64,000 bases of DNA from Volutella citrinella (taxonomy: Eukaryota; Ascomycota; Sordariomycetes; Hypocreales; Nectriaceae). The position numbers were made by a program, and so were the translations under genes. This document shows, piece after piece, positions 1 through 18,469 of the stretch. The notes under the pieces are model-generated. The model made no database searches and had not been told where the DNA came from. It saw only the letters and a list, made by a program, of their open reading frames with translations. The stretch covers positions 3,410,001-3,474,000 of the forward strand of contig JAWZSP010000008.1 in assembly GCA_034401135.1 (NCBI GenBank), in the 5' to 3' direction. Positions within the stretch are counted from its first letter, which is position 1; each line of letters starts with the position of its first letter.

Positions 1-24
1 TTCATTCCGGCCAGAACCGACACC

Positions 25-1623
25 ATGGGATCACGCGATGGCTCAGGCAAGCTGTCATTGTGCCTCACCAAGTCGAGGCGCGAGCTCTATAAACAGGGCG
101 CGGACTGGAACGTTGGCGGTATCAATTCACTGCCGGTTTACCTTGCCTCCGCAAAGGGTTCGCGCTTCAAAGTATGTGCACCTCCGAAGAAGCCACATCG
201 AGACGTGCTGACCAGTCGTTCCGAATAGGACTCGGAAGGCAATGAGTTGATTGACTTCATCTGCGGGTTCAGTGCCTCCAACTTGGGACACTGCCACCCG
301 CACATCGTTGAGGCCCAGATCAAGTCGGCTCAGTCGAGTAAGCCTTTCTTGGCCCTTTCCGCCGCCGCATTGCTGACCTCGCACTCTTTACAGTCACACT
401 GGCTAACATCGCCGGCATGTCGTCGGCTTGGCCACCCACCGCCCAGAGACTGTGCGAGACTTTTGGCTACGACAAGGTCACCGCTATGACGTCTGGCGCT
501 GAAGCTGCCGACACTGCCTGCAAACTCGCCCGTGGCTGGGGCATCCGTGTCAAGAAGATTGCCCCGCGCGATGTTCTGGTGCTCGGCGTGTCCGACAACT
601 ACCACGGCACCATTTCTGGTGTCTGGCCCCTCATGGAGAAGGAGGCCGGCTGGGAGAGTATGGTTGCCCTCAACTTATTGGACTGGTGTATGAATATGCA
701 AGGCTGACTCCAGGACAGGGTATGGGACCTTCAATTCCAACGTCACCAACCTGAATCCCAACACGGGCAAGGTCCTTCGCTACCACCACCCCGAAGACTT
801 TGAGGAGGTCTTTGAGCAGCTTGGGCACCGCATCGCAGGCGTCATCATGGAACCGCTTCATGGCACGGCCCGGTAGGTCCGCCTTGCTTCAACATCCGCC
901 CCCGTCTGCCGTTTGGATAGCCACTGACCCAGGAGTGAGCACAGGTCGATGCAGGAAGAGATCGACTTCTGCGTCGAGGTTCGCCAGCTCTGCAAAAAGC
1001 ACAGCATTCTATACGTTGCCGACGAGGTCCGGATGGGTTCTTGCAAGACTGGCAAGCGGCTGAGCTCTGACTGGCTTGGCCCTGAGAACAAGCCTGATCT
1101 CATTGCCATTGGCAAATCCATCACAAGCGGCGCCTACCCCGCGTCTTTTGTCCTCGGCTACAACGCTGTCATGGCCGACGTCCTGCCCTACGATACCCTG
1201 AGCACCTACTCCATGACGTCCATGGCCTGCGCCGTGGTCAACGCAACGCTGGACGTATGGCAAAGCGAGAATGTCACGGAGCGGGCCCTCGACGTTCACA
1301 GGAAGTGGGTCGAGGAGACATCAACCTGGAAAGTCCCCTACCTCCGATATGCCTCTGCATTTGGGGCCGATCTGAATCTCTTCCTGGACGAATCATGGAA
1401 GGAGCAAGGAGCCGACATCACAACTCGCCGCTTTTCCCTGCTCTGTGCTAGCAAGGGACTGCTCGCCTACCCCGGACCTGGCGGTCGTGTCAGGCTCGGC
1501 GTGGCCCTGACCATGTCTGACGAGGATTTGTACCAAGGTATGAGAATCCTGAAGGAGGCCTTGGATGAGCTGCCGCTGTACGGTTTCATCGAGGGGTCAG
1601 AGGAGACTGTTGGTGGATTCTAG
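25..1623 (+). CDS. Class III (PLP) aminotransferase, ornithine/GABA/putrescine aminotransferase-like
   Basis: Five exons read cleanly: 25-171, 229-337, 394-657, 719-872 and 945-1623, giving 450 residues, a normal length for the family. The start at 25 has a good context (ACACCATGG) and leads into NVGGINSLPVY and then DSEGNELIDF, the usual N-terminal signature. The glycine-rich cofactor region is TSGAEAADTACKLAR. The PLP aspartate is in VADEV and the Schiff-base lysine is in IAIGKSITSGAYPAS. The family moves an amino group from an omega-amino acid, diamine or ornithine to a 2-oxo acid. The substrate cannot be read from sequence. The apparent stop at 226-228 is only an intron acceptor. The motif DEVRMGSCKTGK departs from the common DEVQTGxGRTGK form. 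Neighbouring aldehyde dehydrogenase and agmatinase genes suggest an amine substrate (inference). Confidence 0.88.
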
Positions 1624-1942
1624 ACGTCTGGTGCTATTGCTAGTTTCGACAGTATTCAAAACAAGTGACTGATTTTTAAAACCCTCATTTCTACCACGGT
1701 GAACGAGTAATGAGATGTTTGATATGTTAGCATTTGTATTTGACCAGTGTTTTCTAATGAAAATTGACATTCAGCAAAGTTTTCGTCACCTGCCACCAAG
1801 GTGTCCGCCCTCAGGATGACGAGTTCAATGGGTGCTAATGCAAGAGTTAGCACAGGCTACCGCTGATGCTGGGAAATCATCGAGAAGGACCGCTTTTCCC
1901 AACACAAATCTTATTGCTCTATTTAATCTACATGATCAAACG
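1624..1942. other. Convergent 3' spacer
   Basis: This is the gap between the stops of the convergent aminotransferase and MFS genes. It is AT-rich just after the first stop. I see no gene or RNA in it, and it probably holds both polyadenylation regions. Confidence 0.5.
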
Positions 1943-3879
1943 CTAATGAAATGTCATTTCCTTCCTCAGGCTCTGCCCAAAGTACTGCAAAAAGGCCCAA
2001 ACAGGTATGATCAACAGTGTAATGCCAGCTTGGGTGACATAGGACCACGTGAAACCTGGAAACAGACTATCAGCACCTTTTGGAGAATTATCATGCACAA
2101 CGGGGGGGATGCTCACCCATAGTCTGCACCATGTACGTAATGAAACATGGCGAAGCAAACCCAGAAAGCTACGGAAGAGATCAGCTCTTGTCATGCGCAG
2201 CAGGGTGTATGGACTTACGCAGAACCACACAATGTAAAAATTGAAGATCTCGAGCGGATGATCAGGGTAGCAGTCAAAAAAGTATGTCGCGACAGTGGCA
2301 GCAACAACTTGGATCCCCATGCTCACTGCATGCGAACAGTCCTGTCAGCACTCAGGCGGGCTGCTGCGCGAAATACACCACAGAATGGGCGCCCAACTTA
2401 CAGAGAACAAAGCCCACTTGTCCCACAATCCAGTGCCATCTCCTTTCCACCGAAGCGCCCCAGAGAGCCAGACCCAGTGCCGTGACCACGGCGGCCGGGT
2501 AGCCGAGCCACAGACGCATCTCAGGAGTTCGCTCGTTGCCGTTGCGGTGAGCGAGTCTGGCAACGAGCCAGTCGCTCAGACGGCCCGACAGGAAGAATTC
2601 TGCAATGAGAAGGCCTACCAGGAGTCCATAGAAGAGGCCGCCTTGAACCACCGCGCTATCCTCGGCATAGGCCAAGGGGAGGATGGTCAAGATGCCACAA
2701 ATCCTATAATCCAGTGTTAGCCGACTCTTCGGGTCACAGGACGGGGGCTTGGAGCCGTGCGTACCACCAGTAAACAAAGAACACGGCCGAAGTGACACTG
2801 ATTATGAGCTTGGGGTAAGCTAGCAGCATGCAGAAGCGCAGAGCACCTTCATAGACGCGGGGGTGCTGAATGCCGGGGAGTTTGACAAGGGCCTAAATCG
2901 ATGTGAGTGGCGCGGGAAGCAAAGTCTTTTGGCGTGGGTTCAATATCATACAAACTTTGGGAGAGCCCTGGTCCGTGGGATGTCGTCGAGCGAGCGGCCT
3001 TGGCGCTCCCTCTCCACGACGAGGTCGCGAGGATACGCCGTCTCGGGCTGGAAGAGGACGATGGCGAGGAGAAGCACGCCAAATGCAATGAGGCATTGGT
3101 ACTGTGCCCATGCCGCGTTGGCTAACGCTGTGAAGCAGCCAACTGGTCGTATCGTCAGTTGCGTAATCTATAGGTAAGCAGGGGATGTGATGCCATTCAG
3201 ACTTACTGGAACCTCCAAGGACACACCCGACATCATTTGCGAGGACCCAGAGGCCTGCATTACGTCCGCGCTGGTGCTCCCAAGAAACGTCTCGCACCAT
3301 GGCAAATCCGACGCTCATGGTAGGGCCGGATCCGATGCCCTGCAGCAGCCGTAGGAACATGTAGGCGCCAAAGGAGATGCCATTGATAGTGAGGCAGCCA
3401 GTGGCTACGATGACCAACACGCAGCCGTAGATCATTACGGGACGCCGTCCGTAAATATCACCAAAGGATACGAAAATGAGCGTGCCGACGGCCAGGCCTA
3501 GGGACGCGACGCCGACCGCCCAGCTCACCGTCGCGTAGGTCTCGCCAAACTGCTCCGCAAGCTGGGGGAGCGTTCCGGCAATGATGCCATTGATGTACAT
3601 TGACATGAAGTTGGCAAAAATGGCAATCAGGATGACGAGCCACTTCAGCGCTCGGGGCCAGTTGAGGGGATCGAGGGGGTCGTTGGTCGGCGTGGGCGAC
3701 AGGGGGATGCCGTATGGTTCGAGGCGTGTCTCTGCGCAGGATGTATGGCCCGGAAGACTGCCAGTCTTGGCCAGTTCAACGTTGATAGACCCGGTATCTG
3801 TAGCGGTAGGGTCGGTCATCTTGGCCTTTTCCAAATCACAGGCGCTAGGGTTGGAAGTAGTGGCTGTCGGGCTGGGCAT
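1943..3879 (-). CDS. MFS transporter (DHA1-like, drug/polyamine type)
   Basis: About seven exons. The first runs 3879-3207 and ends at a GTAAGT donor. A hydrophilic tail leads to the DPLNWPR motif that precedes helix 1 in fungal DHA1 carriers. The loop 2-3 motif is FGDIYGRRP, and helix 4/5 has RLLQGIGSGPTMSVGF. The middle exon carries GRLSDWLVARLA and TPEMRLWL, typical of the second half. Helices 9-12 continue through TYFFDCYPDH and FTWSYVTQAG to a stop at 1943. By splicing I could join all parts in frame, so the gene looks intact at roughly 500 residues. One donor (near 2764, GTACGC) is weak but acceptable. It is a plasma-membrane or vacuolar proton-coupled carrier. The substrate is unknown. 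Position next to amine-metabolism genes fits uptake or export of an amine (inference). Confidence 0.85.
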
Positions 3880-4987
3880 GTCTCGCGCTGCGACGTGGCA
3901 ATGTTATGGACACCGAGATGTAGCTAAGTACTAATTATAGTAGAACGCGCCCCGAATATGCAAAGAAGCCAAGCACGGGATCAATGCCATCATTGCCATT
4001 GCACTTATATCAACCTATTGTGCTGGGGAGTCGATATGGCTGGCTTAAGCATGACTTGTTGCGATAGCCGCCGGTCTCTGGGAGTGACGCTAGATTGCGG
4101 GGCCAATTCCCCAATGAAGCAATAAGCGCCGCATCCGCTTATCTGATGAGTGGCATTATGTACAAGTAACTTAGTTGAATGCACGGTGTGTGCGCTAGTG
4201 AGATGTGGTAACCACACGCCCCCTTCCCGAAGGCGTGCGCAGGGTCAACCAAGTTCGTCTGTGAAGGAGGACGCGACAAGGTATTTGACACGACAAGTCT
4301 ATGTCATCTCAGTTAGCACATGTCTCGGTAAACTGCGCTCGAAAAATACTAGATCTACAAGCCACGATGTGTCCTTTCGTGTTTGGGATGGACAAAAACG
4401 ACATTACTAAAGGCGCAATCACACCCAGAACGAGGGAGCTGAATATCGACACAGGGAGGGAGATTTTTTTCTCATAGTCGTATGTTTGCCAGCACCTGTC
4501 CAGCCTCTCGCGACGAAGCCAAGATCCTGACTGCATCGCCCATTGCATCTCCGTTGCCGCTTGTATTTGGTTTCGTCGGCAGACCTACCCCGCAACCCCG
4601 GACTCTGTCGGTCCGTAAACGGTCCGGTGGCTGGCTTCGATGGTCTGGAGGTGATGTGGCCCAGTGCGTCGGTGCCTTTGGCCGTAAGGTGGATTGGGAT
4701 TGGTACGCTTATGCTCGGCTCACGGGTAAGCTTTCGCGAGTCAATTGCCGCTGTCTCCACTACGATTCCCGAAGAGATTCCTTGGTGTAATGTCGAAGGG
4801 GGCTTGCAACAATAGAAAGAGATTCACAACCTCCTTGAACTTGAGGCTGCGATCTTACACCTGATTGTTATGCACAGGAATACAACAAAATTAGCACATT
4901 GCTGGAACAATTTCTGCAGAGTGGACTCGACTGTTCAGTGGATATGTCTGACATCATCTTGGTCTAATCTAAGCGCGCAGTGGCCCA
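3880..4987. other. MFS promoter / ALDH 3' spacer
   Basis: This spacer holds the upstream region of the MFS gene (minus strand) and the 3' side of the aldehyde dehydrogenase. No convincing coding region is present. The open frames at 4419-4815 are short and lack recognisable motifs. A CGGTCCG pair lies at 4609-4626 and is listed separately. Confidence 0.5.
4609..4627 (+). promoter_or_regulatory. Paired CGGTCCG boxes upstream of the MFS gene
   Basis: CGGTCCG occurs at 4609-4615 and again at 4620-4626, an 11 bp step of about one helical turn. Each is CGG-N1-CCG, an inverted pair of the CGG triplets that Zn2Cys6 proteins bind. They lie about 730 nt upstream of the MFS start. The same 7-mer is paired again in the ALDH/regulator promoter. 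Function is inferred. Confidence 0.4.
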
Positions 4988-6644
4988 TCATCCCACAATC
5001 TGCTTGTTCATGAACAGTGTTTGTACGTTGCAGAATCCCTTGAGGCCGTTGGACCCCCACTCCGAACCGATACCGCTTTCCTTGTGTCCTCCAAAGGGAG
5101 CAATGGGCGACAAGTCAAAGTGCGTGTTTATCCAAACGCTGCCTGACTGGATTTCCTTGCCCATAGCAATAGCCTTGTCGATATCGTTGGACCAAATGGA
5201 TGCTCCGAGGCCCAGAGTGGTATTATTGGCCCGGCGAATAACCTCTTCCTCTGTCTTCCACGACAAAAGGGGCACGATGGGGCCAAAGGGCTCCTCAACG
5301 ACGATGCGTGAGTCCTCCGGGGGGCGGTCGATGACGGTGGGCGTAATATAGTAGCCACCGGCGGGCTCGGGCTCCATCTTGCCGCCGGTAGCGACTTTCC
5401 AGCCCTGTTTCTCAATGTCATCAAAGAATGTCTTGACGCGGTCGTACTGCATCCTGTTTTGCAGAGGGCCGTGGGTGGTTCCCTTGTTGGAGCCGTCGCC
5501 GATGGTAAACGCCTTTACGTGACGGACTAGGGCGTCGCGGAACTCTTCAAAAATGGACTCGTGGACGTAGATGCGTTTAAGATTGAGGCAGATCTGGCCG
5601 GAGTTGAGAAAGGCGAAAAACGCAACCTTCTCGGCGACCTTGTCGATATTGACGTCGGGATGCACAATGGCAGGATCGTTGCCGCCACTGCCCACACGTT
5701 AGCAACTTGGCCATTGCCGTTCAGGCGAGATCCCAGGTTATAGAGGCGAGGCTGCTTACAGTTCCAGAGTCACTCGCTTGAGGGTAGTACTTGCGCTGCG
5801 CAGCACGGCCTTGCCGGTGGCAGTAGAGCCCGTAAAGCTGATCTTATCGATGCCGGGGTGACTGGTGATCCAGGGGCCCAGATCGTCGCCGCCGCTCAGA
5901 GACTGGACCACGCCGGGAGGGAAGAAGCGCTGGGCAAGCTCAACAAGCTTGAGGCCGCAGTATGGAGTAAATGGGCTGGTCAGTCTGTTAGCCGCAAGGG
6001 ACGGGAGGTGGTGCTTGGATTCTTTCAGTCCGTCACTCACGAGGGCTTGATGATGATGACGTTGCCAGTTAATAGAGCAGGGGCGATTTTGCCCGTGGCC
6101 AGGAGCAGTGGAAAGTTCCATGGCACAATGGCGGCGACGATGCCAATGGGAGTGTAGCGAGTAACGACCTTGCGCTTCTCATTCTCCTCGATTACGTCCT
6201 CCGGGATGGCGATGTTGGCCATGCCGCGAATCCACTCAATGGCTGCATCCGTCTCGGCATCAGCTTGCGGCGTCTGATATCGTCAGAATCGTGTCACACC
6301 CGACAGCACCGCACCGCGGGGATAGAACAACGTACGGGCTTGCCTTGCTCAAAGGTCAGGAGATCACGGAACTCGGTGCGTAGTTCGTCGATGGCATCGG
6401 CGAAGGCCAAGACGAGCTTCCGACGCTCCTCATAGGGAACTTTGGACCATCCGGGCAGGGCCTGCTTGGCGGCGGCGACGGCTCGGTCGAGGTGCTCATG
6501 TGTGGACAAGGGCACCTCGGCGGACTCCTCGAGATTGGCGGGGTTGATAGCACGTCGCGTGTTGCTGGTGGGCGCCGATTCGCCGTTTATGATTTGGACG
6601 TAGTTGTCCTTGACATTCAAGGTGGTCGTCTTGTGGGTCGGCAT
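4988..6644 (-). CDS. NAD(P)+-dependent aldehyde dehydrogenase
   Basis: The start is the ATG at 6644 (MPTHKTTTL), chosen over in-frame 6710 because family proteins begin near this point. Four exons can be joined. Exon 1 ends after LLTFEQGKP. Exon 2 carries [19 protein letters not shown], the cofactor-binding region. Exon 3 has [11 protein letters not shown] and ends at VTLEL, where the catalytic Glu sits just before an intron. The last exon begins GGNDPAIV and holds the catalytic Cys in [11 protein letters not shown], then [11 protein letters not shown]. It ends with the C-terminal [10 protein letters not shown] motif. Length is about 470-480 residues, normal for the superfamily. It oxidises an aldehyde to the acid in the cytosol. 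Beside an aminotransferase and an agmatinase, 4-aminobutanal is a reasonable substrate (inference). It is divergent from the Zn2Cys6 gene at 7486. Confidence 0.92.
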
Positions 6645-7485
6645 CTCTGCTCTGGGGCAATGGGTGTGTATGACTGACAATGTTCGATACCAAGCAAGGG
6701 GAGTTGACACTGTGGTCTAGTGAAGTCTGAGAGAGTCTACCCCAGACTGGGATCTCGGGGCCTATATACACAGAACAGGGGGGAATTGCCGTTCTTCCTA
6801 TCTCAGTCATGTCACTCCACTCAGTGCCTCCCCCGGCAAACCCACAAGGGGTATTGGCTCTGGGAGACTACTATGTAGACGAAACTTATTCGTGGGGTAG
6901 GCTCCAATTTCCCAAAATGGGAATGCTCCCCGCATTCAACCCGAACCGACGGTCCGACCGTTTTGCGGTCCGGACTTCGGGTCCCACGAACGCGACTAGG
7001 AAATGGCAGCGTGCCGACAGCCAAGATGAATACATCCATCATTATACATGGCATGGCGGACCTGCAGACGACCCTTGATGCCGTCATAAGCCACCGCTCC
7101 ACCGAACATGCACCTTCTCGCAACTGGCAACAAGCAAGCGCGTATCGGTGGCTGCTCTCTTGGCGGCGAATTATTCATATTGCATATGGAGCTATATTCG
7201 AGAATCGACCACATCATCCAGGCCAGGGGCGTCTAGGCAATAATACCCGACCTTAGTTGAGTTTCGCCGCCAAGGTTACGGGGTCTGGTGCACCATTTCA
7301 GCAAAGTTGGTCTGGGGGTACCGGCAAGCCTTGAGCTAGGGGGCGGTAAACAGGTAACAGGGGGGTTAGCGCATCATGGCGTCACATGACCAATTGCCAG
7401 TGGAGGCGTGTCAAGTCTCTCCCGACTCCAATGTGGGAAGGGCATGACGCAGTATAATAATTGATCCTTGCACCTCCACGGGAAA
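6645..7485. other. Divergent promoter region, ALDH / Zn2Cys6 regulator
   Basis: These 841 nt separate the two divergently transcribed starts. I see no coding region. A dense group of CGG/CCG triplets sits at 6941-6981 and is listed separately. Confidence 0.6.
6950..6981. promoter_or_regulatory. CGG/CCG palindrome cluster, candidate Zn2Cys6 binding sites
   Basis: CGGTCCGACCG at 6950-6960 is CGG-N5-CCG. CGGTCCG recurs at 6966-6972, and CCGGACTTCGG at 6970-6980 is the everted form CCG-N5-CGG. Paired CGG triplets with a fixed gap are the classic target of dimeric Zn2Cys6 proteins. The group is about 306 nt from the ALDH start and about 505 nt from the regulator start. Binding by the adjacent regulator is inference. 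Confidence 0.5.
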
Positions 7486-9476
7486 ATGCCCCAGACCAGC
7501 CCAGACGTTGTGCGCGGCCAGCCAGCCCCTCAACACAGTCGCTTCCCATGCAAGAAATGTCAAAAATCCAAGCGAAAGGTGTCTTGACCTGCGGCGGCGA
7601 GACCATGGCGCCCTTCTGACGTGATTGATAGTGCGACAAGCGGAGGCCTCAATGTTCGCGATGCGAGAAGCTGGGTGCCGTATGCGAGGCGGCTCAGGAC
7701 CGAGCACGATGGAAGATTGATACACCGCACACTTATCCGGCCAAGGCGCATACGACGACGTCCAATGAAGCTATCCAGCCGACCATGGCCGTCGCCAGCG
7801 AGGACCCGGACCCGGACCCGGACATGGACATGGGTCGGGGCGCGGACTATGCTATGCAACAGTTCCTCGACCAGCCTCTCGGCGAGTCTCTCCAAGAGCT
7901 GCCAGTACATCCGGTGGATGAGACCGCTGCCATAGACCCGGTAATGCTGGATCAAAACGAAGTTGATGCATCGAGCTCAAACTACGAACCGCCAATGGGC
8001 TCGCATGATGGCCTCTCCGTGCTTCCATTCGACTGGATGCAAACAGGCATGACTCCTTCGCCGCTCGGCTCGCTCATGTTCGACTTCCCACCCAACCTGC
8101 GTCCCCCTCTGGAGGCTTCCGTGGAAGAGCCCACGACGTCCTTGGGTGGGCAGCAGCCATCCGACAGCTTCACCGCAAGCATCGACTCCATCGCTGTCGA
8201 CATGGAGCGCCGGCATCCGCAGCAGTCAGCAGCGCGCAGTGCCACACAGCTCAAGGCCCTCTGGAAGTCGTGGACAAGGGAAATCGCCCCGTTCCTCACC
8301 CCATTCGAGGAGCGCCACGACAATCCCTTTATCCGCGACATGGGACAGAGCGCCGAGAGAAGTCCAGCCACGCTCAAGGCCATCCTCCTCGTGGTCTACG
8401 TGATCCTGCGACGTGACCGCCCCGACATGGACGGACCATTGGGCCACTACCTCGAGGCGAGCGCCCAAGACCATCGTCGCGAACTAGAAGAAGGCGGCTG
8501 GGGGGTGGCGAGCCCGTCACCGAACCAGCCGGCCGAGCGCCTCGACGCATTCGCGACGGTGATTGCGCACTGCATGGCCCTGGTTGCGACGGGCGACATT
8601 GCATTGCTTGCTTTTTACGTCGAGTGCGCCACGGTACTCTGCCAGGCGCACTTTCGGACCGTCTCGCACGACACAAGCTTCCTGTACCTGGTCAAGATGC
8701 TGGGCTTCATGCAGAATGCGCTCCTGTTCCGCGCCTCCAGCCCCCAGCTCAACGCACCGGACTACCTCTCGACTGCCCTCGAGCTGCCCGACCATCACGC
8801 GGACCTGCTCTACCGACTAGGCGCCAGCTCTAGCCGCCATAGTGGCTGCTTCCGGGATATAGATCTCTTCTCCGGCCTGTCCGCCACAACGGCGAGCATC
8901 CTGCACACACTGGGTGTGTTGATCAACAAGCAGGCGCGCATGGAGCAGCACCTGGAGCACATGGGCGACGAACCCGCTCAGGCGCGTTCCTTCATGTCCC
9001 AGGTCGATGGGCTTGAGGCGCGTCTACAACGCCATGTCGCCCTGGTTGGCAGTCGGGGCTCGGAGGGAGAGGACCCCGGAGCCCCCGCCGACAGAGACAC
9101 GGCCGTGGCATTTTGCCTCCACCGGTACAACGAGGCTGTCGTGTGGAGCGCCCACGTGCTGTTCCTCCACAGCCTCAAGGGCGTCTCTCCTGATGCCGAC
9201 GCGCAGCTGCAGCAGAATGTCGAGACGATACTCGACACGTGCGCCGAGATACCCCAGGACAGCCCGGTAGCGCCCATAATTGTATTCCCTCTCGTGGTGG
9301 GCGGGATGAGAGTGAGGAAGCCGCTGTATCGCGAGTTTGTCATCAATAGACTGGAGAGAATGTGTAATCGCGGGTTGACCAACACGAGCGAGGTTGTCCG
9401 GGAGCTGGAGACGTGGTGGGCTGGTGCGAGGATTGCAACCGAGCCTCTAGCCTTTACGAAGCAAATAATAATTTGA
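7486..9476 (+). CDS. Zn2Cys6 (GAL4-type) transcription factor
   Basis: The start at 7486 (MPQTSPDVV) was found by tracing the zinc cluster upstream of the long open frame. Exon 1 is 7486-7578 and the intron is 7579-7631, 53 nt. The intron splits the zinc cluster: CKKCQKSKRK before it, then CDKRRPQCSRCEKLGAVC after it. The spacing is C-X2-C-X6-C-X6-C-X2-C-X6-C. Read without this intron the gene looks as if it had lost its DNA-binding domain. The acidic stretch DPDPDPDMDMG follows. The rest, to the stop at 9476, is a helical regulatory region with a conserved C-terminal part. The total is about 645 residues. It probably acts in the nucleus on neighbouring genes, given its divergence from the ALDH and the CGG boxes between them (inference). 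The family of the middle region could also be aflatoxin-regulator-like. Confidence 0.88.
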
Positions 9477-9881
9477 CAAAATCATATTGGCTGAGGCCCT
9501 GCGTGAGTGATTTTGGGCATTGACCAAGCCCAGAGATATCCTCTGCCATTTGTGCACGAGTCTAGCGGTTCTGTCCGCCGCCGACGCCCTCCTTGGCCTG
9601 ACACTGCGGCGCGCTCCTTGGTTGGTTCTCTGGGTTGTGCGGCAGTTATTGCTGCATTGGGAAATGTATCCACAGACTCGTTTGTTTGTTGGACTACCAT
9701 CCACGCACGGCGTTCACACTCTGGGCACTCGCACGTCTTTTTTGTTCGCCCGCTCCTCACACAGTTTTCTTCCACACTTGTTTGACGATCCCCGTGGTAT
9801 CTTTGCCGGAAACACTTGCAGGCGCACTTTTTCTTTTACTGCAAAAAAGAAAGAAAGAAAACAACCAGCAACATCCATCCA
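9477..9881. other. Spacer, regulator 3' end to MATE promoter
   Basis: No gene is seen in this stretch. An A-rich run (AAAAAAGAAAGAAAGAAAA, about 9842-9860) lies just upstream of the MATE start codon, as is common in fungal 5' leaders. Confidence 0.4.
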
Positions 9882-11757
9882 ATGTCGTCTCACGGAACTC
9901 ACACAAAGCAGGGTGCGCTCACCACTACCACCCACGAGACGTCGCCACTTCTTCGCCATGTTCCAATTTACGACGCACGACCGCCTCACCATGTTGCAGG
10001 GGTTTCTCTACGGGGAGAGATCATACTGCTCCTCCGAGCCGCAATACCCGTCAAGACTCCCAAGACTCACATTGCTACCGCCATTGCTAACCCCCCTTCA
10101 CAGATCTCGGGAGGCTATCTCTTGCAAAACTCGATACAGCTGGCCAGCATCACCATCATCGGGTGGCTGGGGCCCCTGGAACTGTCCATTGCCGCTTCAG
10201 GCATCATGATTGCCGTGTGCACGGGCTGGCTGCTGGCTATTGGCGGCACCACGGCGATTGGTTAGTGTCCTCCTGCGATCCCTTTTTGATCTGTGAGCCA
10301 GCCAGGCAAACTTACGCAAGAAGACGCTCTCGGTTCGCGATCCCACGTCGACGGAGATAGGAACGGCGAGCTGGGCCGTCTAGTCCAGCTCTGCTTTGCC
10401 GTCCTCACCCTCCTCTACATTCCCATTGTGCTTCTCTGGTGCTTCATCGGGCCCATACTCGTTCGATGCGGGCAACCAAGCGATCTCGCCTACGGAACGC
10501 AAACCTTTCTACGGCTGCTGGCACCGGGCGGCCTGGGTTATATCTACTTTGAATCTCTTAAAAAGTATCTCCAGTGTCAAGGTGCGAGAGTATGCTTTTT
10601 GTCTTGGGCCCTTTCGCGCGGCTGACTTGCTACACAGACATTCGCACCCCGGGCGCAATTGTGCTGCTTGTCGTGGCCGTGATCAATGTCCCGATCTGCT
10701 GGACTTTTACACACAAACTGGAATACGGCCTGGCTGGTGGCGTTCTGGCGACCGGGGCCATGTACTGGCTCGCCTTCATCCTACTGCTCTCATACGCGTT
10801 TGTCATTCGTGAGCGGTGCTCTTGGGAACCCCCCTCGCCCAAAACCTTTCACGACATTGGACCATTCTTCAAACTTGCCATGCTTGGCATCGTCATGGTC
10901 GGAGCGGAATGGTGGGGATTCGAGTTGATTGCCGTCGCCGCGGGAGTCTTGGGCCCCGTACCTGTGGCTGCGCAGTCCATCTTGATGACAGTCGACACCA
11001 TCCTCGCCCTCGTTCCATTTGGGTAACCTTCCCCGACCCGTTCATGTGCGCAAGAAACCCCAGATGTCGGCTAACACGCAGGCCCAAAGCCTAGGTGTGG
11101 CGTCGACCAACCGCATAGCGGGCTTGCTTGGTTGTGGCAAGAGGAAGCAGGCTCGCAAGGCTGCATTGGCCTCATCTTGTCTCGCATTTGCCAATGGGTG
11201 CACGACCATGACTCTGGTCATGGTTGGCCGCGGTCTCATTGCCCGTGTCTTCACGGTGTGCCTCTTGCTCTTCATCCTGTCAAACACCAAGCTAACCGAA
11301 CTTGCAGGACGACGACAAGGTCATTGAGATGGCTGTCGCTGTTTTCCCTTGGGGAGCCGCCTTTCAGGTTGTCGACAGCCTGCAAGCTGCTAATTCTGGC
11401 TGCCTACGAGGCATTGGTCGGGCAGACATTGGAGCGCGCTTCAACCTGTTTGCCTACTACGGTAAGTGTGCTATCCTGACAATGCCTTCCCTGGAGAGAG
11501 CTCATAGTTGCTAGTGGTTGCGATTCCTCTTGGGCTGTTGACTGGCTTTTATTTTGAGTGGGGGCTCCACGGATTGTGGTTTGGGGTAAGTCGCCTCCAT
11601 CTCTAGGTGTTTGTATGGCTAACTGTTGATGTCCACCTAGCTTGCGGTCGCTTTGGCCATTGTTGGCTTTGGAGAATTTGCCCTCGTCAACTATGTGTCA
11701 TGGGACCGTTATGTAGACTACGAGGCGGTGGAGCAGCAACCTGAGAGAGAGTCTTGA
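9882..11757 (+). CDS. MATE family multidrug/organic cation efflux transporter
   Basis: The start MSSHGTHTKQ at 9882 has a short acidic/threonine tail, ending ETSPLLR, before helix 1. After a first intron (about 10051-10102) the signature YLLQNSIQLASI appears, followed by LAIGGTTAI, the hallmark of the first MATE repeat. The second repeat includes EWWGFELIAVAAGVLG and VPVAAQSILM, then NRIAGLLG. Introns join in frame through SLKKYLQCQ to DIRTPG and onward. The last exons read LTGFYFEWGLHGLWFG and end in a charged tail at 11757. The expected LCSQAYG after the TALD-like site is replaced by LGSRSHVDGD, an oddity for this family. It is a polytopic exporter in the plasma or vacuolar membrane, coupled to H+ or Na+. 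It may export a toxic amine or drug (inference). Confidence 0.87.
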
Positions 11758-12192
11758 GGCTAAGTCTGTCGCGGGTCTTGAAACGATATAACGGAGTGCC
11801 CGAGGCAAACTGGACTGTTATCATCTAAACAGTGTGATTGAGGTGCCAATGTACGGCATCTATGTTGGAATCAGCTGTAGTTTCTATTGTGCACGTATGA
11901 GACTGTGTGTTGCATGGGCATTGCGATATTTTCCGCCATCTAGACAAGCCCCCCTCAGCGCGAAGGATGAAGAGAGAGTATTTATGTATGAGGAACGAGC
12001 CGAACTATTAGACCTTAAGCAATACATGTGTATGGTAAACCTTGGGAAACCTTTCCGACTTGATCTATCCTTCATCTTAAAGAAGCTATAGTCCGCCTAC
12101 CAATTTACTATACAACAGCATACCCGCGCGCCACAACCCTCTCTTCTCGGCAACGGGTCGTTGGCCATGTTTACTACTCCAGCAAAGCAAAC
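11758..12192. other. Convergent 3' spacer, MATE / agmatinase
   Basis: This lies between two convergent stops. Only short frames are seen (for example 85 codons at 11834) and none has a recognisable motif. Confidence 0.4.
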
Positions 12193-13465
12193 TCAAAGTT
12201 CTCCGCCTCCGTTAGGGGGAAACACAGGGACGTGGACCATCCACTGCAGGAGCTCGTACATGATTTCTGTGACGACAATAGCGGTTGTCTCCGCCGTGTT
12301 ATCGTAGACAGGCGTGAATTCGACGACATCAGCGCCCACAATTTTAACGCCAGCGGTGGACAGGCCACCTAGGATATGTAAGAGTTCCCTTGAGGTCCAC
12401 CCGCCCGGCTCAATGGTGCCCGTACCAGGTGCAAAGGCTGCATATAAGTAAGTATCAAAAATGACCAAGCAGGGAGACAGGGGTGCCGCTTCACTCACCT
12501 GGGTCTAGCACGTCAATGTCGATGCTGACGTAGACGTATTGGCCCTGCACGGTGTCGACGATGCGACTGATGATCTTGTCTATGCCCAAGGAGTCCATCT
12601 CGCGGGCCCGGATATACGAGAAGCCACAGCGGGCGTCATTTTCGAGGTCGTAGTGCTTGTCCATGAGCATGGATCGCGAGCCAAGGTGCATGTTGCCCTT
12701 GTCGGGGAGCAAACCCTCGCGGTGCAGGAGGTGGAACATGGTGCCGTGGGTCACCTCAGAATACTTGGTCAGGCCGCCGCTCAGCTGCTTGGGGTCCCAC
12801 GAGTCGAGGTGCGAGTCGAAGTGCAGGACAGCCACTGGGCCCCAAGTCTTGTGCAGGGAGCGGATGGCGGGGAGGCTGATGGTGTGGTCGCCGCCGACGC
12901 TGAGAATGCGCGGCACGGCACCCTTTTGCGGGTTGGCAACCTTGCGCCTGGCAATGCTGTCCCATCCATTCTCAAGGTCGTGAATGGCTTGCAGCTTATC
13001 GAACGGATCGTTGGAAATGTCGCCGCAGTCGACCACCCTAGCCCAGTCGCGGAAGGGGTTGGTGTCGTGGTCCATGCTGTAGGCGAACGAGGGAGTGAGT
13101 CTCCGAGAACCCATGCGCGCGCCGGCCGGACCAAAGCGCGCCCCGGGCCGGTATGTGACGCCGAGGTCAAACGGTGCGCCCACGATGCCAATGTCAAATG
13201 ATTCATCCTCGGCAAAGCAGTTGGTAGCGTTGAGGTGGGCGAAAGTAGCGATGCCTTGGTAGGGCACGGCGTCCTGGAACGAGTTCTGGCGCTGAGTTTG
13301 AGCGGCGGTAGTCGTCAGCAGACTAGCTCTTGGTGAAAAGATGGTCGCGTCTATGAATGGGGGATCCGACTGTTGCATTGTCGTCTGCTGTTGCGCCTGT
13401 TGGGCTGGGCTGGCTGTTGCCTTGGCGGCGAGATTGCATGCAAGGAGAAGCTGCGTCAACTTCAT
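12193..13465 (-). CDS. Secreted agmatinase/arginase-family ureohydrolase
   Basis: The start is ATG 13465, giving MKLTQLLLACNLAAKATASP, a clear secretion signal. The longer in-frame start at 13570 would bury it. Mn-binding motifs are all present: GGDHTISLP, HFDSHLDSWD and SIDIDVLDPAFAPGTG. The last is split by one intron whose donor is GTGAGT near 12495. The domain fills most of the protein, and ESFDIGIVGAPFD and GARFGPAGAR match the family N-terminal core. The C-terminus ends EFTPVYDN..TAIVVTEIMYELL. It hydrolyses a guanidino compound, usually agmatine, to urea plus the amine (putrescine), and probably acts in the secretory path or outside the cell. Exact substrate is not proven. Its promoter faces 13466-13831. 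It fits an amine catabolic set with the aminotransferase and ALDH upstream (inference). Confidence 0.9.
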
Positions 13466-13831: not shown

Positions 13832-16273
13832 TTAGACATTGATGCCGAGCTCCGTTGCCAGCCAGCCGGGCACAGCAGGTGGGCTCCCCCAACCGTCCAA
13901 ATACTTCTCCTCGGGGCCCCCAGGCTTGGCATACGCTGCCGTCACATATCGTACAGTCTCGCCCTTGTTCACAGTGTGCTGCAACGTCGGGATGGTCGTC
14001 CTGCTCTCAATCAAGTTCGAGTTTGGGTCGGCGTTGACAAGATTGGCCCGTCGACCAGTCTCGAGGCCAGATTCAAGTGCCTTGACTCCAACTGCACCGG
14101 CCTCTTTGGACACGGCGAATGAGCCTTCAGACCCTGGAGTCCATCCATCTGCAGTGTTGGGGTCATAATTGCCAATGATCTTGGGCGACGTTCCCTCATG
14201 ACGTTCCGCGTTGTACAGCTCTAGATAACGCCCATTGCGCGAGTTGACGTTCCTGATTGCGAATCCGCCGTCGGCTGTCATGACATCTCTACCCGCCTCA
14301 ATCTCGTGTGCTCTTAGATGCCAGTTTGGCGCCTGCGATGTTGGTGGTATGAGATAAGTTTTGACCTTCACGTCTGGAAACGGCCGCCAGACGGACACGA
14401 GAACGGGCTTGTCATCTCGCTGCTCGACTGCTGCGTATTCACTTATCCGTCTTGTCTTCCAGTACTCCCCCCCATCGTTAGAGAGGCCAAGCTGGGATGC
14501 CAAGTCGTATTGCTCTAGAGAGAAGAGTCCAGGGGGGACAGAGTAGCCATAAGCGCTACTGTAGGCAAAGCCTCCATACTTTGCGTGGGTGCCTTTCATT
14601 GGATAACCGCAAGCCTGCCCGGAAGATAGCAGTATGCAATGACCACCAAGGTTGCTATATCCTCCGTTTTTAGCCTCTTCTTTATCCGAAGATTGCTAGA
14701 GAATAGACTGACCTGATGATGTGGCCAGGATGCTTCAGAGCCTTGACTTTCGGAAAAGCGTCGCCTAGTGGCTCTTCATCTGAGGTCCAGAATGGATGGC
14801 TTTCTGGGACAGCGAGGCAGACAAAGGCTAGACAAGCCCAGTACTACGTTTAGTTTTAGCTCAATATGCACGCACTGCTTGCCAAGAGCTAAACCTACCG
14901 GGCTCCCTGGACTGTTGTAATTTTCCGTGAGCTGTCACCTCGTGTCAGTTGTCATGTCTCCTGGCAGCGGCAAGAAGCTTGCTACTCACATACATGTTCG
15001 GATACTAGTATCCGAGGGACAAGGTACCGGTAGCTGTCCACATGGAGTCCTGGGTCTGCCACCAACGAAGGTGACGGAGCACAATTCCCTTGACCATACC
15101 CCATGTCAAGGGGGCAGGCAGCTCTACATTAGCATATGCAAGAGATCCCCAGAACGAAACAACGCCAAATCGATAACCCATACTGCGGCCATAAGGGATG
15201 GCCCGTCCTTGGTCATCATAGTAGTGGACTAGGTCGAGAGCAGCCAGTTGGGCTCGCTTTCTAAACTCTTGGGCTCGTTCTGGGTCTTCATCACCGTTCA
15301 GCTGCGCGTATAGAAGCTGCAAGAACTGGATAGCGAAACTGGATGAGTAATAATCCATCTCTGCCAAATGTTAGTCGGCAGACAGGCGATGAACATGTGG
15401 CCCGCTTCGAGAAAGCTGTCTGGGGAGTGCTCACGGTGAATCCCCTCGGGTCCATCATTGGACCATCCGTCCCCGCGATAAAAGGTATCCAAATGCTTAA
15501 TGTCGCTTTCCAGCCTTTCAGGCGAGTACTTTGCACCATTCCTCTTCAAGCCCAGGTTGGCCAAGACTCGGAACCAGAGCCAGTTTGTGTTTGGCATACT
15601 GCGGCTCGTCAGTATCTACCGATGGAATGGACAAGAGTTTGCCCAACTTTTTCTCATTTATCGAGTTTCCAAGCCAAGTCTCAATGTTGACCTTTTCCTT
15701 CTCTGTCAAGCTGGACCAAAAGAAGGGCGCAACAGCAAGAGCATAGCCTGGGCGTCACAAACATGAGAATCCATGATGGGCATCAGACACAGAGTAAGCG
15801 GACCTACCAATAGGGCACATCTCAACCATCCTCTGATCATTATCCATTGGGGATCCCTAGTACTCAGGGCTCTCCGGATCCGTGCCCGCCTTGAGGCCCT
15901 GGATCCACCAGTCTGTGAGTCGGAACTCGCCGTCTCCAGCCAACAGGAAGGTTAGGCCCCAGAGCGGACGAGCAAAGCCCTCAATCTCTGACGCCGCATG
16001 GTCGAATCTGACGGCAGTGCCGCCCGGACAGTTGACGCGAGCTTTCTGCGGCGAGAAGAAGGGTTCTAGGGGCTCAAGCACAGTTCGGAGTAGCTCTTGA
16101 GCGGATGATCGATCCTTGATATGAACTTTGCAAAGGGATGGGTATCCCCGTTGCCGATGAGGAGACGCATGGTGATTCAGAAAGATCGCGGGAATACGGT
16201 CGGTGTTATTGACAAGGTGCGGGCAGCTAGAAACCGCGAGGAGGGGTGATGCAGGGTGGGGAATGCAGAACAA
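13832..16273 (-). CDS. DUF2264-domain protein, start uncertain
   Basis: Several exons carry the conserved DUF2264 blocks: [50 protein letters not shown] and [12 protein letters not shown]. They continue with [27 protein letters not shown] and [12 protein letters not shown], ending [11 protein letters not shown] at 13832. Length is about 620-650 residues, normal for the family. DUF2264 proteins are predicted all-alpha sugar-active-like proteins without settled function. The N-terminus is unclear. The in-frame ATG at 16273 adds an atypical tail. The ATG at 16170 ([16 protein letters not shown]) begins like other members but is in a different frame and would need a one-base shift near 16100-16145. 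It may be damaged or misassembled there. I see no signal peptide. Confidence 0.75.
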
Positions 16274-16452
16274 CCAAGCTCGTCTGGTGCCTCATTTCAG
16301 GACCAACTAGACTCAAAATGCTTTATATCAGTCAAGTTATACCTTGACCAGGCTCCATTCCGAGTCGAGAAATAACCGTCGGCGTCCAAGACGCCTCGGA
16401 TATTAGCAAGACTCAGGCAAAGGCCGACGATGCGCTGCATCTCGAGGCTGCA

Positions 16453-18131
16453 ATGTCCAAGGAGGATCTCGCCAAAGGCCCCGACCATTCCCGTCTCGAT
16501 CCCGAGGTTGCCAAGTATGCCTCGCAGCGCGCCGTCCACATTGACGAGGCGACCAATAAGCGACTCAAGAGGATGATTGACAGGAGGGTCCTTGCATGCA
16601 TGGTCGGCACGTACTTCCTGCAGGCTCTTGACAAGGGCACCATCTCTTTTGTCGCCATCATGGGCATCCGCGAAGACACTGGCTTGGTTGGGCAGCAGGT
16701 AAGTCGACTGGACTGCAGCAGTGGAAATTACCAAGAGAAGTTCGGGGACTAACTTGGCGCCTCACAGTTTAGCTGGTTGTCGACATGCATCTACATCGCC
16801 GTCCTCTTCGTCGAGTATCCGACCAACTGGGTCCTGCAGAGGGTCCCCATCGCCAAATACCTCGCGGCCAACATCATCCTCTGGGGCATCACCCTCGCCA
16901 TGCACTCCGTCTGTCATAATTTCGTCGGCCTCGTCATCGCCCGTACCGTCTTGGGATCTCTCGAAGCTGTCTGCCAACCTGCCTTCATTCTGCTCTCCGG
17001 CACCTGGTACACGCGAGACGAGCAGGCTTCCATTACAGTGACATGGCTCCTGATGGCTGGTCTCCAGCAGATCATGGGTGGTCTTCTCGGCTACGGATTC
17101 GCCAACATCCCCGCCTGGTCGCCGCTCAAGTCGTGGCAGGCCTTGTTCGTGGCGTACGGCAGCATCACCGTCCTCTGGGGTATTTTTGTGCTCTTCTGGA
17201 TGCCCGACTCCCTGATGAAGGCCAAGTGTTTCAGCGAGGAGGACAAGGCTCTCATGCTCGAGCGTGTTCGAAAGAACCAGACTGGAGTACAGAACCGCAT
17301 CTTCCGACGTGAGCAAGTTTGGGAAGCCTTCAAGGACCCTCAGAGTAAGTCTTGGCTAATAGCCGTAATCAAAACATTGACAAGTAGGAGCTGACGAGAG
17401 ACACGCAACAGCCTATGCCTTTTGCATCATCCAAATATGCACCACCATTCCGTCCGGCGGACTCAGCGCCTTCTCCGCCATCCTCATCAAGAGCTTTGGT
17501 TTCCCGACGCTGCATACGCAGCTTCTGGCCATGGTTCCCGGTGCTGTGCAAATCTCCTCCATGGTAGCAGCGCTGTACTTTGACAAAAAGTACAAGCAAG
17601 TGACCCTGACAATGCTGGGCGCGACTCTGGCTCCCCTCGCGGTAACTGTCATGTTCCTCTCGGTCCAGTGGTCTCCTTCCACGCGCATCGGCCTTCTCGT
17701 TGCCTATTACATCCTCTGGTCCTTCTACGCCGCCGTCGGTCTCTTGTTCTCCCTCGTCTCCCGCAATGTCGCCGGCCAGACCAAGAAGGCCGTCGTCATC
17801 GCCACCACCTTTATCTTCTGGGCGGCAGGAAACTCGGCCGGGCCCCAGGCCTTTCGAGCAACTGAGGCACCACGCTACTTTTCCGCGTTTGCGGTGAGTT
17901 GGCCTGCTGGGTGACCATGGCGCTAACCCTCATACTCCTGCGCTTCCACTACAAGTTCCAGAACAAGAAGAAGGAGAGGATGATTGCTGAAGGCAAGGCT
18001 GTCGCCGACGTTGACTTGGTCCACGGTTTCGAGGACATTACCGACATGGTGAGTACTTTTATGTCGTATACAATATCAGCAACTAATCATTCCCAAACTA
18101 GGAAAACGTCAACTTCCGCTACATTTACTAA
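16453..18131 (+). CDS. Dal5-type allantoate/anion permease (MFS), frame lost in the last helix
   Basis: The start at 16453 gives MSKEDLAKG, a hydrophilic N-terminus. Helix 1 is LACMVGTYFLQALDKGTISF. After an intron (GTAAGT donor) comes FSWLSTCIYIAVLFVEYPTNW and then AKYLAANIILWG. The family signatures SLEAVCQPAFILLSGTWYTR and GLLGYGFANI follow. After another intron: TYAFCIIQICTTIPSGGLSA and AGNSAGPQAF. Dal5-family carriers import allantoate, nicotinate-like or other organic anions. Near 17890-17905 the frame reads YFSAFAVSWPAG and stops. The next frame continues ACWVTMALTLILLRFHYKFQ, clearly the last helix, and a final exon ends NVNFRYIY at 18131. One base appears to be missing. Otherwise the gene would be complete. 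Confidence 0.82.
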
Positions 18132-18469
18132 TCCGAAAGTTGCGTCAGGGGAATGGTGGACTAATTCTCTTCTCTCAGACGTTAAATATGCAGTGTTGCC
18201 TAGTATGAGTATATATAGGCAATGGCTCCAATCTTGACGTCTTTGTTACCGAGTCCGATCGTGCCGCTTTTGTTGCAGACATATTTAGAGCGAAATAAAG
18301 ACGAACCATCCCGGCTCGAGGAGATGTATTTTCTCCCAACAGGTTTCATGCATCCATCTCATGCTTGGTCATGAGACTAACGTAGAAGAGGGGCTCGGGC
18401 AGGCTGATAATGACGTGCCTGGCCTATAGCTGCTCAGCATTGTTGACGGCGGCGAAGCTGAGGAGAGCC

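What the first reader, a model, noticed from the sequence alone, without database searches (positions are those of the whole stretch)
25..13465. Candidate agmatine/putrescine catabolic gene set with its own regulator
Secreted ureohydrolase (agmatine to putrescine), class III aminotransferase (putrescine to 4-aminobutanal), aldehyde dehydrogenase (to GABA), a DHA1-like carrier, a MATE exporter and a Zn2Cys6 gene sit within 13.5 kb. The enzyme order makes a complete chemical path. I am not aware of a described fungal cluster of this exact composition.
Basis: partly seen in the sequence, partly recalled or inferred. Interest (0 to 1): 0.75.

Follow-up and report, generated by a model that had tools for sequence, protein, structure and literature searches.

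The report
Fungal agmatinase-type gene cluster candidate
Six neighbouring genes near a chromosome end of a mould look like a kit for scavenging nitrogen from guanidine-bearing amines such as agmatine; parts of the kit travel together in some other fungi, but the exact food molecule and the chemical route are unproven.

Summary
All six genes exist, intact and spliced, at the stated coordinates. The grouping looks more than chance: aminotransferase and ureohydrolase share a contig in 5 other species; a second ureohydrolase of this genome also sits beside a MATE gene; 2 of 16 genomic CGGTCCG direct pairs lie upstream of the MFS and ALDH/regulator genes, though the single word is not significant after correction. 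The chemistry is only partly supported. The aminotransferase is nearest to ornithine aminotransferase but has lost four residues that handle ornithine, as have nearly all of 74 relatives counted; putrescine is possible, not shown. The ureohydrolase is agmatinase/guanidinobutyrase-like with complete metal motifs. The ALDH best matches aminobutyraldehyde dehydrogenase, far below its cut-off. Copper amine oxidase and GABA transaminase loci lie elsewhere, so this is not the only route. Best reading: an accessory, subtelomeric cluster for agmatine or a related guanidino-amine. Literature searches showed no fungal cluster of this composition.

The parts
25..1623 (+). OAT-like class III aminotransferase, 450 aa, 5 exons (25-171, 229-337, 394-657, 719-872, 945-1623)
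1943..3879 (-). MFS transporter, probably DHA1 type, 521 aa, 7 exons
   Evidence: the DHA1 type rests on matches below cut-off
4609..4626 (.). direct pair CGGTCCG-N4-CGGTCCG upstream of the MFS gene (candidate regulator site)
   Evidence: one of 16 such pairs in 45.1 Mb
4988..6644 (-). aldehyde dehydrogenase, 485 aa, 4 exons
6950..6972 (.). direct pair CGGTCCG-N9-CGGTCCG in the shared ALDH/Zn2Cys6 promoter (candidate regulator site)
   Evidence: one of 16 such pairs in 45.1 Mb
7486..9476 (+). Zn2Cys6 regulator with Fungal_trans_2 domain, 645 aa, 2 exons
9882..11757 (+). MATE-family transporter, 491 aa, 8 exons
12193..13465 (-). arginase-family ureohydrolase (agmatinase/guanidinobutyrase-like) with putative signal peptide, 403 aa, 2 exons

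Best explanation
An accessory, subtelomeric nitrogen-scavenging gene cluster for a guanidino-amine, most likely agmatine. The secreted-type ureohydrolase splits the substrate outside the cell (or in the secretory path) into an amine (putrescine if agmatine) and urea; the MATE and the DHA1-like carrier move the organic cations across membranes; the cytosolic OAT-like aminotransferase passes an amino group to 2-oxoglutarate and the ALDH oxidises the resulting aldehyde to an acid (GABA if putrescine); the Zn2Cys6 protein switches on at least the ALDH, the MFS gene and itself through paired CGGTCCG sites. Shown: genes, domains, metal and PLP motifs, AT-ureohydrolase linkage in other species, a second ureohydrolase-MATE pair. 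Inferred: the substrates, the direction of transport, extracellular action, the targets of the regulator.
For: Ureohydrolase: the two best NCBIfam models are agmatinase (215.5 and 155.8 bits; cut-offs 302 and 174.3), and the metal motifs GGDHT, DSHLD, SIDIDVLDP are present. AT and ureohydrolase share a contig in Ilyonectria destructans, Cylindrodendrum hubeiense (g474/g478), Fusarium avenaceum (013893/013890), Penicillium bialowiezense and Aspergillus affinis: 5 exact contig-length matches with matching species names, against 2 matches in 40 offset controls. Ureohydrolase beside MATE at two loci of this genome (435 bp apart here; about 1 kb apart on C4, with an amino-acid permease beyond) out of 6 ureohydrolase and 6 MATE loci; about 0.008 such pairs within 5 kb expected by my arithmetic. 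Agmatine and putrescine are said to be human MATE1 substrates (PMC12340637, passages seen). AT lost Y55, Y85, R180 and E235 of OAT and keeps the PLP Lys and Asp and R413; R180T alone costs human OAT over 1000-fold (PMC13327489, passages). Two other loci are over the OAT cut-off. Two of 16 genomic CGGTCCG pairs are in the cluster.
Against: No member reaches a curated cut-off for its proposed specificity. The best solved relatives of the ureohydrolase are guanidinobutyrase and guanidinopropionase. A putrescine aminotransferase is far from the AT in sequence (6gwi 69 bits, against about 165 for human OAT). ALDH linkage in relatives is weak. CGGTCCG as a single word ranks 5th of 2867 promoter 7-mers and is not significant after correction; none lies in the regions searched before MATE or the ureohydrolase, and one reverse site lies inside the regulator's coding region. 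Fourteen copper amine oxidase loci (my grouping of 35 matches) and 3 loci over the GABA transaminase cut-off lie elsewhere, so the cluster need not be required for putrescine use. The same MATE1 paper found few short amines to be MATE1 substrates. No expression data.
Confidence: 0.4

Rival explanations
1. Guanidinobutyrate route: an amine oxidase or the AT, plus the ALDH, turns agmatine into 4-guanidinobutyrate, and the ureohydrolase is a 4-guanidinobutyrase that gives GABA and urea.
For: The best PDB match of the ureohydrolase is a guanidinobutyrase, 3nio. Fungi have this enzyme: A. niger and C. parapsilosis GBase (PMC10833137, two sections read), and C. albicans Gbu1 beside an agmatinase Agt1 (PMC7439472, one section read).
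Against: The two agmatinase models outscore the other ureohydrolase models listed (formimidoylglutamase 98, arginase 73 bits), but no guanidinobutyrase model is in that list. The substrate loop is longer than that of the P. aeruginosa enzyme around its M161. A secreted enzyme would hardly follow two cytosolic steps (inference).
Confidence: 0.2
2. The set degrades another guanidino natural product (for example a plant phenolamide of agmatine or a microbial guanidine compound), with MATE and DHA1-like carriers as tolerance exporters.
For: Both carriers match multidrug-type families (for the MFS below cut-off); AT specificity is open because the ornithine-handling residues are gone in nearly all of 74 relatives; the named AT relatives include many plant-associated genera (lifestyles recalled).
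Against: No direct evidence for any such substrate.
Confidence: 0.2
3. Two or more neighbouring units: AT + ureohydrolase (+ MATE) form one set, and regulator + ALDH + MFS form another, unrelated one.
For: By locus tag, AT and ureohydrolase have only 2-3 genes between them in two species; CGGTCCG pairs mark only the ALDH/regulator and MFS upstream regions; P. foliicola holds the ALDH at 89% and shows no AT hit.
Against: Here the second set lies inside the first rather than beside it; one CGGTCCG lies 307 bp before the AT; in I. destructans all three enzymes share one contig.
Confidence: 0.2

Closest known systems
Candida albicans Agt1 / Gbu1 and Aspergillus niger GBase (agmatine and guanidinobutyrate use)
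   Same: Arginase-family enzymes serving agmatine or guanidinobutyrate as nitrogen source
   Different: No aminotransferase, MATE or local regulator is mentioned in the sections read
Bacterial putrescine transaminase pathway (YgjG/SpuC + aminobutyraldehyde dehydrogenase; pathway recalled)
   Same: Aminotransferase plus aldehyde dehydrogenase for an amine
   Different: The AT here is OAT-like and distant in sequence from the putrescine aminotransferase listed; ALDH far below the aminobutyraldehyde dehydrogenase cut-off
Ornithine aminotransferase (CAR2/OAT)
   Different: Y55, Y85, R180 and E235 replaced by I, F, T, T; below the OAT cut-off (286 against 378.4 bits)
Fungal nitrogen-catabolic clusters with their own regulator (for example the proline cluster; recalled)
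   Same: Compact set of enzymes, carrier and regulator
   Different: Different substrate class and gene content

Membership tests
Agmatinase | Metal-binding motifs of the arginase fold | tested here: met
   GGDHT 191, FDSHLD 216, SIDIDVLDP 314; Arginase domain
Agmatinase | Curated NCBIfam cut-off | tested here: not met
   155.8 of 174.3 and 215.5 of 302 bits; the library is made for bacteria and archaea
Agmatinase | Activity on agmatine | not testable with these tools
   needs an enzyme assay
Ornithine aminotransferase | NCBIfam TIGR01885 cut-off | tested here: not met
   286 of 378.4 bits
Ornithine aminotransferase | Y55, Y85, R180, E235 for ornithine | tested here: not met
   I, F, T, T here; among 74 relatives with a letter at the column: Y55 in 1 of 62, Y85 in 0 of 61, R180 in 0 of 68, E235 in 0 of 68
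Putrescine aminotransferase | Sequence or fold closest to YgjG/SpuC | tested here: inconclusive
Aminobutyraldehyde dehydrogenase | Curated cut-off | tested here: not met
   best of the models listed but 387.8 of 615 bits
MATE transporter | TIGR00797 cut-off | tested here: met
   240.5 bits, cut-off 147.4
DHA1 drug:H+ antiporter | Bcr/CflA or 2_A_01_02 model cut-off | tested here: not met
   62.2 of 200.9 and 57.9 of 131 bits; MFS_1 itself is met, 123.7 of 33.4
Zn2Cys6 regulator | Zn_clus domain with six cysteines | tested here: met
   32.6 bits, cut-off 21; CKKCQKSKRKCDKRRPQCSRCEKLGAVC
Fungal catabolic gene cluster | Co-location kept in relatives | tested here: inconclusive
   AT + ureohydrolase on one contig in 5 species; ALDH with both in 1 and with the ureohydrolase in 1 more; MFS, MATE and regulator not testable
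Fungal catabolic gene cluster | Co-expression | not testable with these tools
   no RNA data

The most novel reading that the evidence does not exclude
Filamentous fungi hold an extracellular ureohydrolase-MATE module, linked in some lineages to a so far unnamed fungal aminotransferase family that is filed as 'ornithine aminotransferase' but is very unlikely to be one. It salvages agmatine or plant and bacterial guanidino-amines outside the cell, by transamination rather than by the copper amine oxidase route.
Probability: 0.3. Interest if true: 0.65.

Novelty: new variant of a known kind. Interest (0 to 1): 0.45.

Why it matters
If true, it gives fungi a dedicated, regulated route to use agmatine-type amines, molecules reported as inducers of trichothecene production in Fusarium graminearum (passages of PMC4960244). 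It would also correct the database label of a family of fungal enzymes called 'ornithine aminotransferase', and suggest a role for secreted-type fungal 'agmatinases' and for a fungal MATE transporter.

Tried and rejected
Ordinary ornithine aminotransferase: rejected as unlikely (cut-off and four active-site residues; two other loci are over the OAT cut-off). Y85 to F is a mild change and E235S costs human OAT only about 8-fold, so the case rests mainly on Y55 and R180.

GABA transaminase plus succinate-semialdehyde dehydrogenase: the AT scores at most 142 bits on the GABA-T models listed, whose cut-offs are 507 or more, and 3 loci over the eukaryotic GABA-T cut-off lie elsewhere. The ALDH scores 351 bits for SSADH (cut-off 646) against 388 for aminobutyraldehyde dehydrogenase (cut-off 615), so SSADH is not firmly excluded.

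A shared site before all six genes: not found. CGGTCCG occurs before AT (1), MFS (2) and ALDH/regulator (2), not in the regions taken before MATE (405 bp) or the ureohydrolase (366 bp). As a single word it ranks 5th of 2867 7-mers, uncorrected p 2e-4, and does not survive correction. The pair pattern was chosen after seeing the sequence; its 16 genomic matches include two that overlap each other, and the tool's control (pattern read backwards) gave 92.

8YEN, the closest solved ALDH: a paper search gave one review that holds the term (listing only). Rows dropped: of 81 AT hits, P0075-P0081 (25-27% identity) were left out of the residue counts; alignment A1 used 37 of 81 AT hits, A2 30 of 120 listed ureohydrolase hits, 119 of 120 ALDH rows had a contig length. 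The ALDH and ureohydrolase lists show only the best 120 of about 8000, so absence there is weak evidence.

Not in print: searches of the held open library showed no fungal cluster of this composition (listings only, apart from the passages and sections cited); most subscription papers are not held.

Full report
Observation. The window lies on contig C8 (3410001-3474000 of 3506764) of a 45.1-Mb, 26-contig genome. The last 120 bases of C8 are TTAGGG repeats, so the locus is about 83-97 kb from a telomere. Six intact spliced genes lie in 25-13465. The flanks look unrelated: to the left ankyrin-repeat and low-complexity ORFs (by eye), to the right a DUF2264 gene and another MFS gene. Of the 11 nearest aminotransferase clusters (63-73% identity) 8 are from Ilyonectria, Fusarium, Cylindrodendrum or Clonostachys (Hypocreales, recalled) and 3 from Colletotrichum; the ALDH is 89% identical to one of Paramyrothecium foliicola.

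Is the grouping more than chance? (a) Of 81 aminotransferase hits and 120 listed ureohydrolase hits, five pairs share an exact contig length and a species name: Ilyonectria destructans, Cylindrodendrum hubeiense (G7Z17_g474 and g478), Fusarium avenaceum (HG530_013893 and 013890), Penicillium bialowiezense, Aspergillus affinis. Shifting the lengths by 1 to 20 either way gave 2 matches in 40 trials. The last two species' aminotransferases are more distant (45% identity; 59% over a 278-aa partial protein), and for them and I. destructans only the shared contig (137, 62 and 1526 kb) is known, not the distance. Of the 11 nearest aminotransferase clusters 3 are linked in this way; for the other 8 no link was seen, which is weak evidence because the ureohydrolase list is cut at 120 and each cluster shows one contig length. 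(b) The genome has at least 6 arginase-family loci and 6 MATE loci. Two ureohydrolase loci lie beside a MATE gene: this one (435 bp apart, convergent) and C4:4268-4272k (about 1 kb apart, divergent, MATE 40% identical, an amino-acid permease beyond it). The C4:1657k paralogue has no MATE-like ORF in its 10 kb. About 0.008 pairs within 5 kb would be expected (my arithmetic, uniform placement). (c) The direct pair CGGTCCG-N0-20-CGGTCCG occurs 16 times in the genome, twice here: upstream of the MFS gene and in the ALDH/regulator promoter. The pattern was chosen after seeing the sequence, and as a single word it is not significantly enriched after correction. These ties are partial, but together they touch all six genes: AT-ureohydrolase, ureohydrolase-MATE, and MFS-ALDH-regulator, with one site before the AT.

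Ureohydrolase. Agmatinase models score best of those listed, below cut-off; the closest solved chains are guanidinobutyrase and guanidinopropionase. The metal motifs are complete. A hydrophobic N-terminus is found in 32 of 45 nearer and 49 of 73 further listed relatives, but the window's copy is the weaker case (1.61 under a 2.0 threshold). Two paralogues on C4 also have a signal-like start: one scores 2.86, the other by eye. Fungal agmatinase and guanidinobutyrase functions are known from mutants and enzymes (sections read of PMC7439472, and PMC10833137).

ALDH. The best NCBIfam model is aminobutyraldehyde dehydrogenase, 388 bits of a 615 cut-off. The catalytic Cys and Glu motifs (recalled) are present in the translation. 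Names such as FUS7 in public hits look like annotation transfer. The link to AT and ureohydrolase in relatives is weak: one species with all three on a 1.5-Mb contig and one with ALDH and ureohydrolase.

Carriers and regulator. The MFS carrier looks DHA1-like, but only by matches below cut-off. The MATE is over its family cut-off. A paper states that agmatine and putrescine are substrates of human MATE1, while its own screen found few short amines that MATE1 takes (passages of PMC12340637); the fungal protein is untested. The regulator has Zn_clus and Fungal_trans_2 domains.

Alternative routes in the genome. Fourteen copper amine oxidase loci (my grouping of the 35 matches) and 3 loci over the GABA transaminase cut-off lie elsewhere. 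In F. graminearum on wheat a copper amine oxidase gene was 81-fold and an agmatinase-related gene 4.7-fold higher in pathogenic than in saprophytic growth (passage of PMC4960244). The cluster would be an extra, conditional route.

Verdict. A real locus, partly conserved in other fungi, with a plausible but unproven agmatine-type function.

Noticed in passing
L027 (G000:C4:4266000-4275999), 1-5907: A second secreted-type agmatinase-like gene lies divergently about 1 kb from a MATE gene (40% identical to the window's), with an amino-acid permease next to it.
   Followed up: partly
window 13832-18237: A gene with DUF2264 and DUF2264_C domains (minus strand) and an MFS carrier gene (plus strand) lie next to the cluster; probably a separate unit.
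   Followed up: no
L014 (G000:C4:4765324-4766589): A further OAT-like aminotransferase, also without R180 and E235 of OAT (L and T there), with a permease ORF and Zn2Cys6-like ORFs in the neighbouring 10 kb stretches.
   Followed up: partly
P0001-P0074 (database hits): Many of these fungal proteins are labelled 'ornithine aminotransferase' in public databases although the ornithine-handling residues are almost all replaced.
   Followed up: yes
G000:C8, last 10 kb (L022): The contig ends in telomere repeats, so the cluster is subtelomeric.
   Followed up: yes
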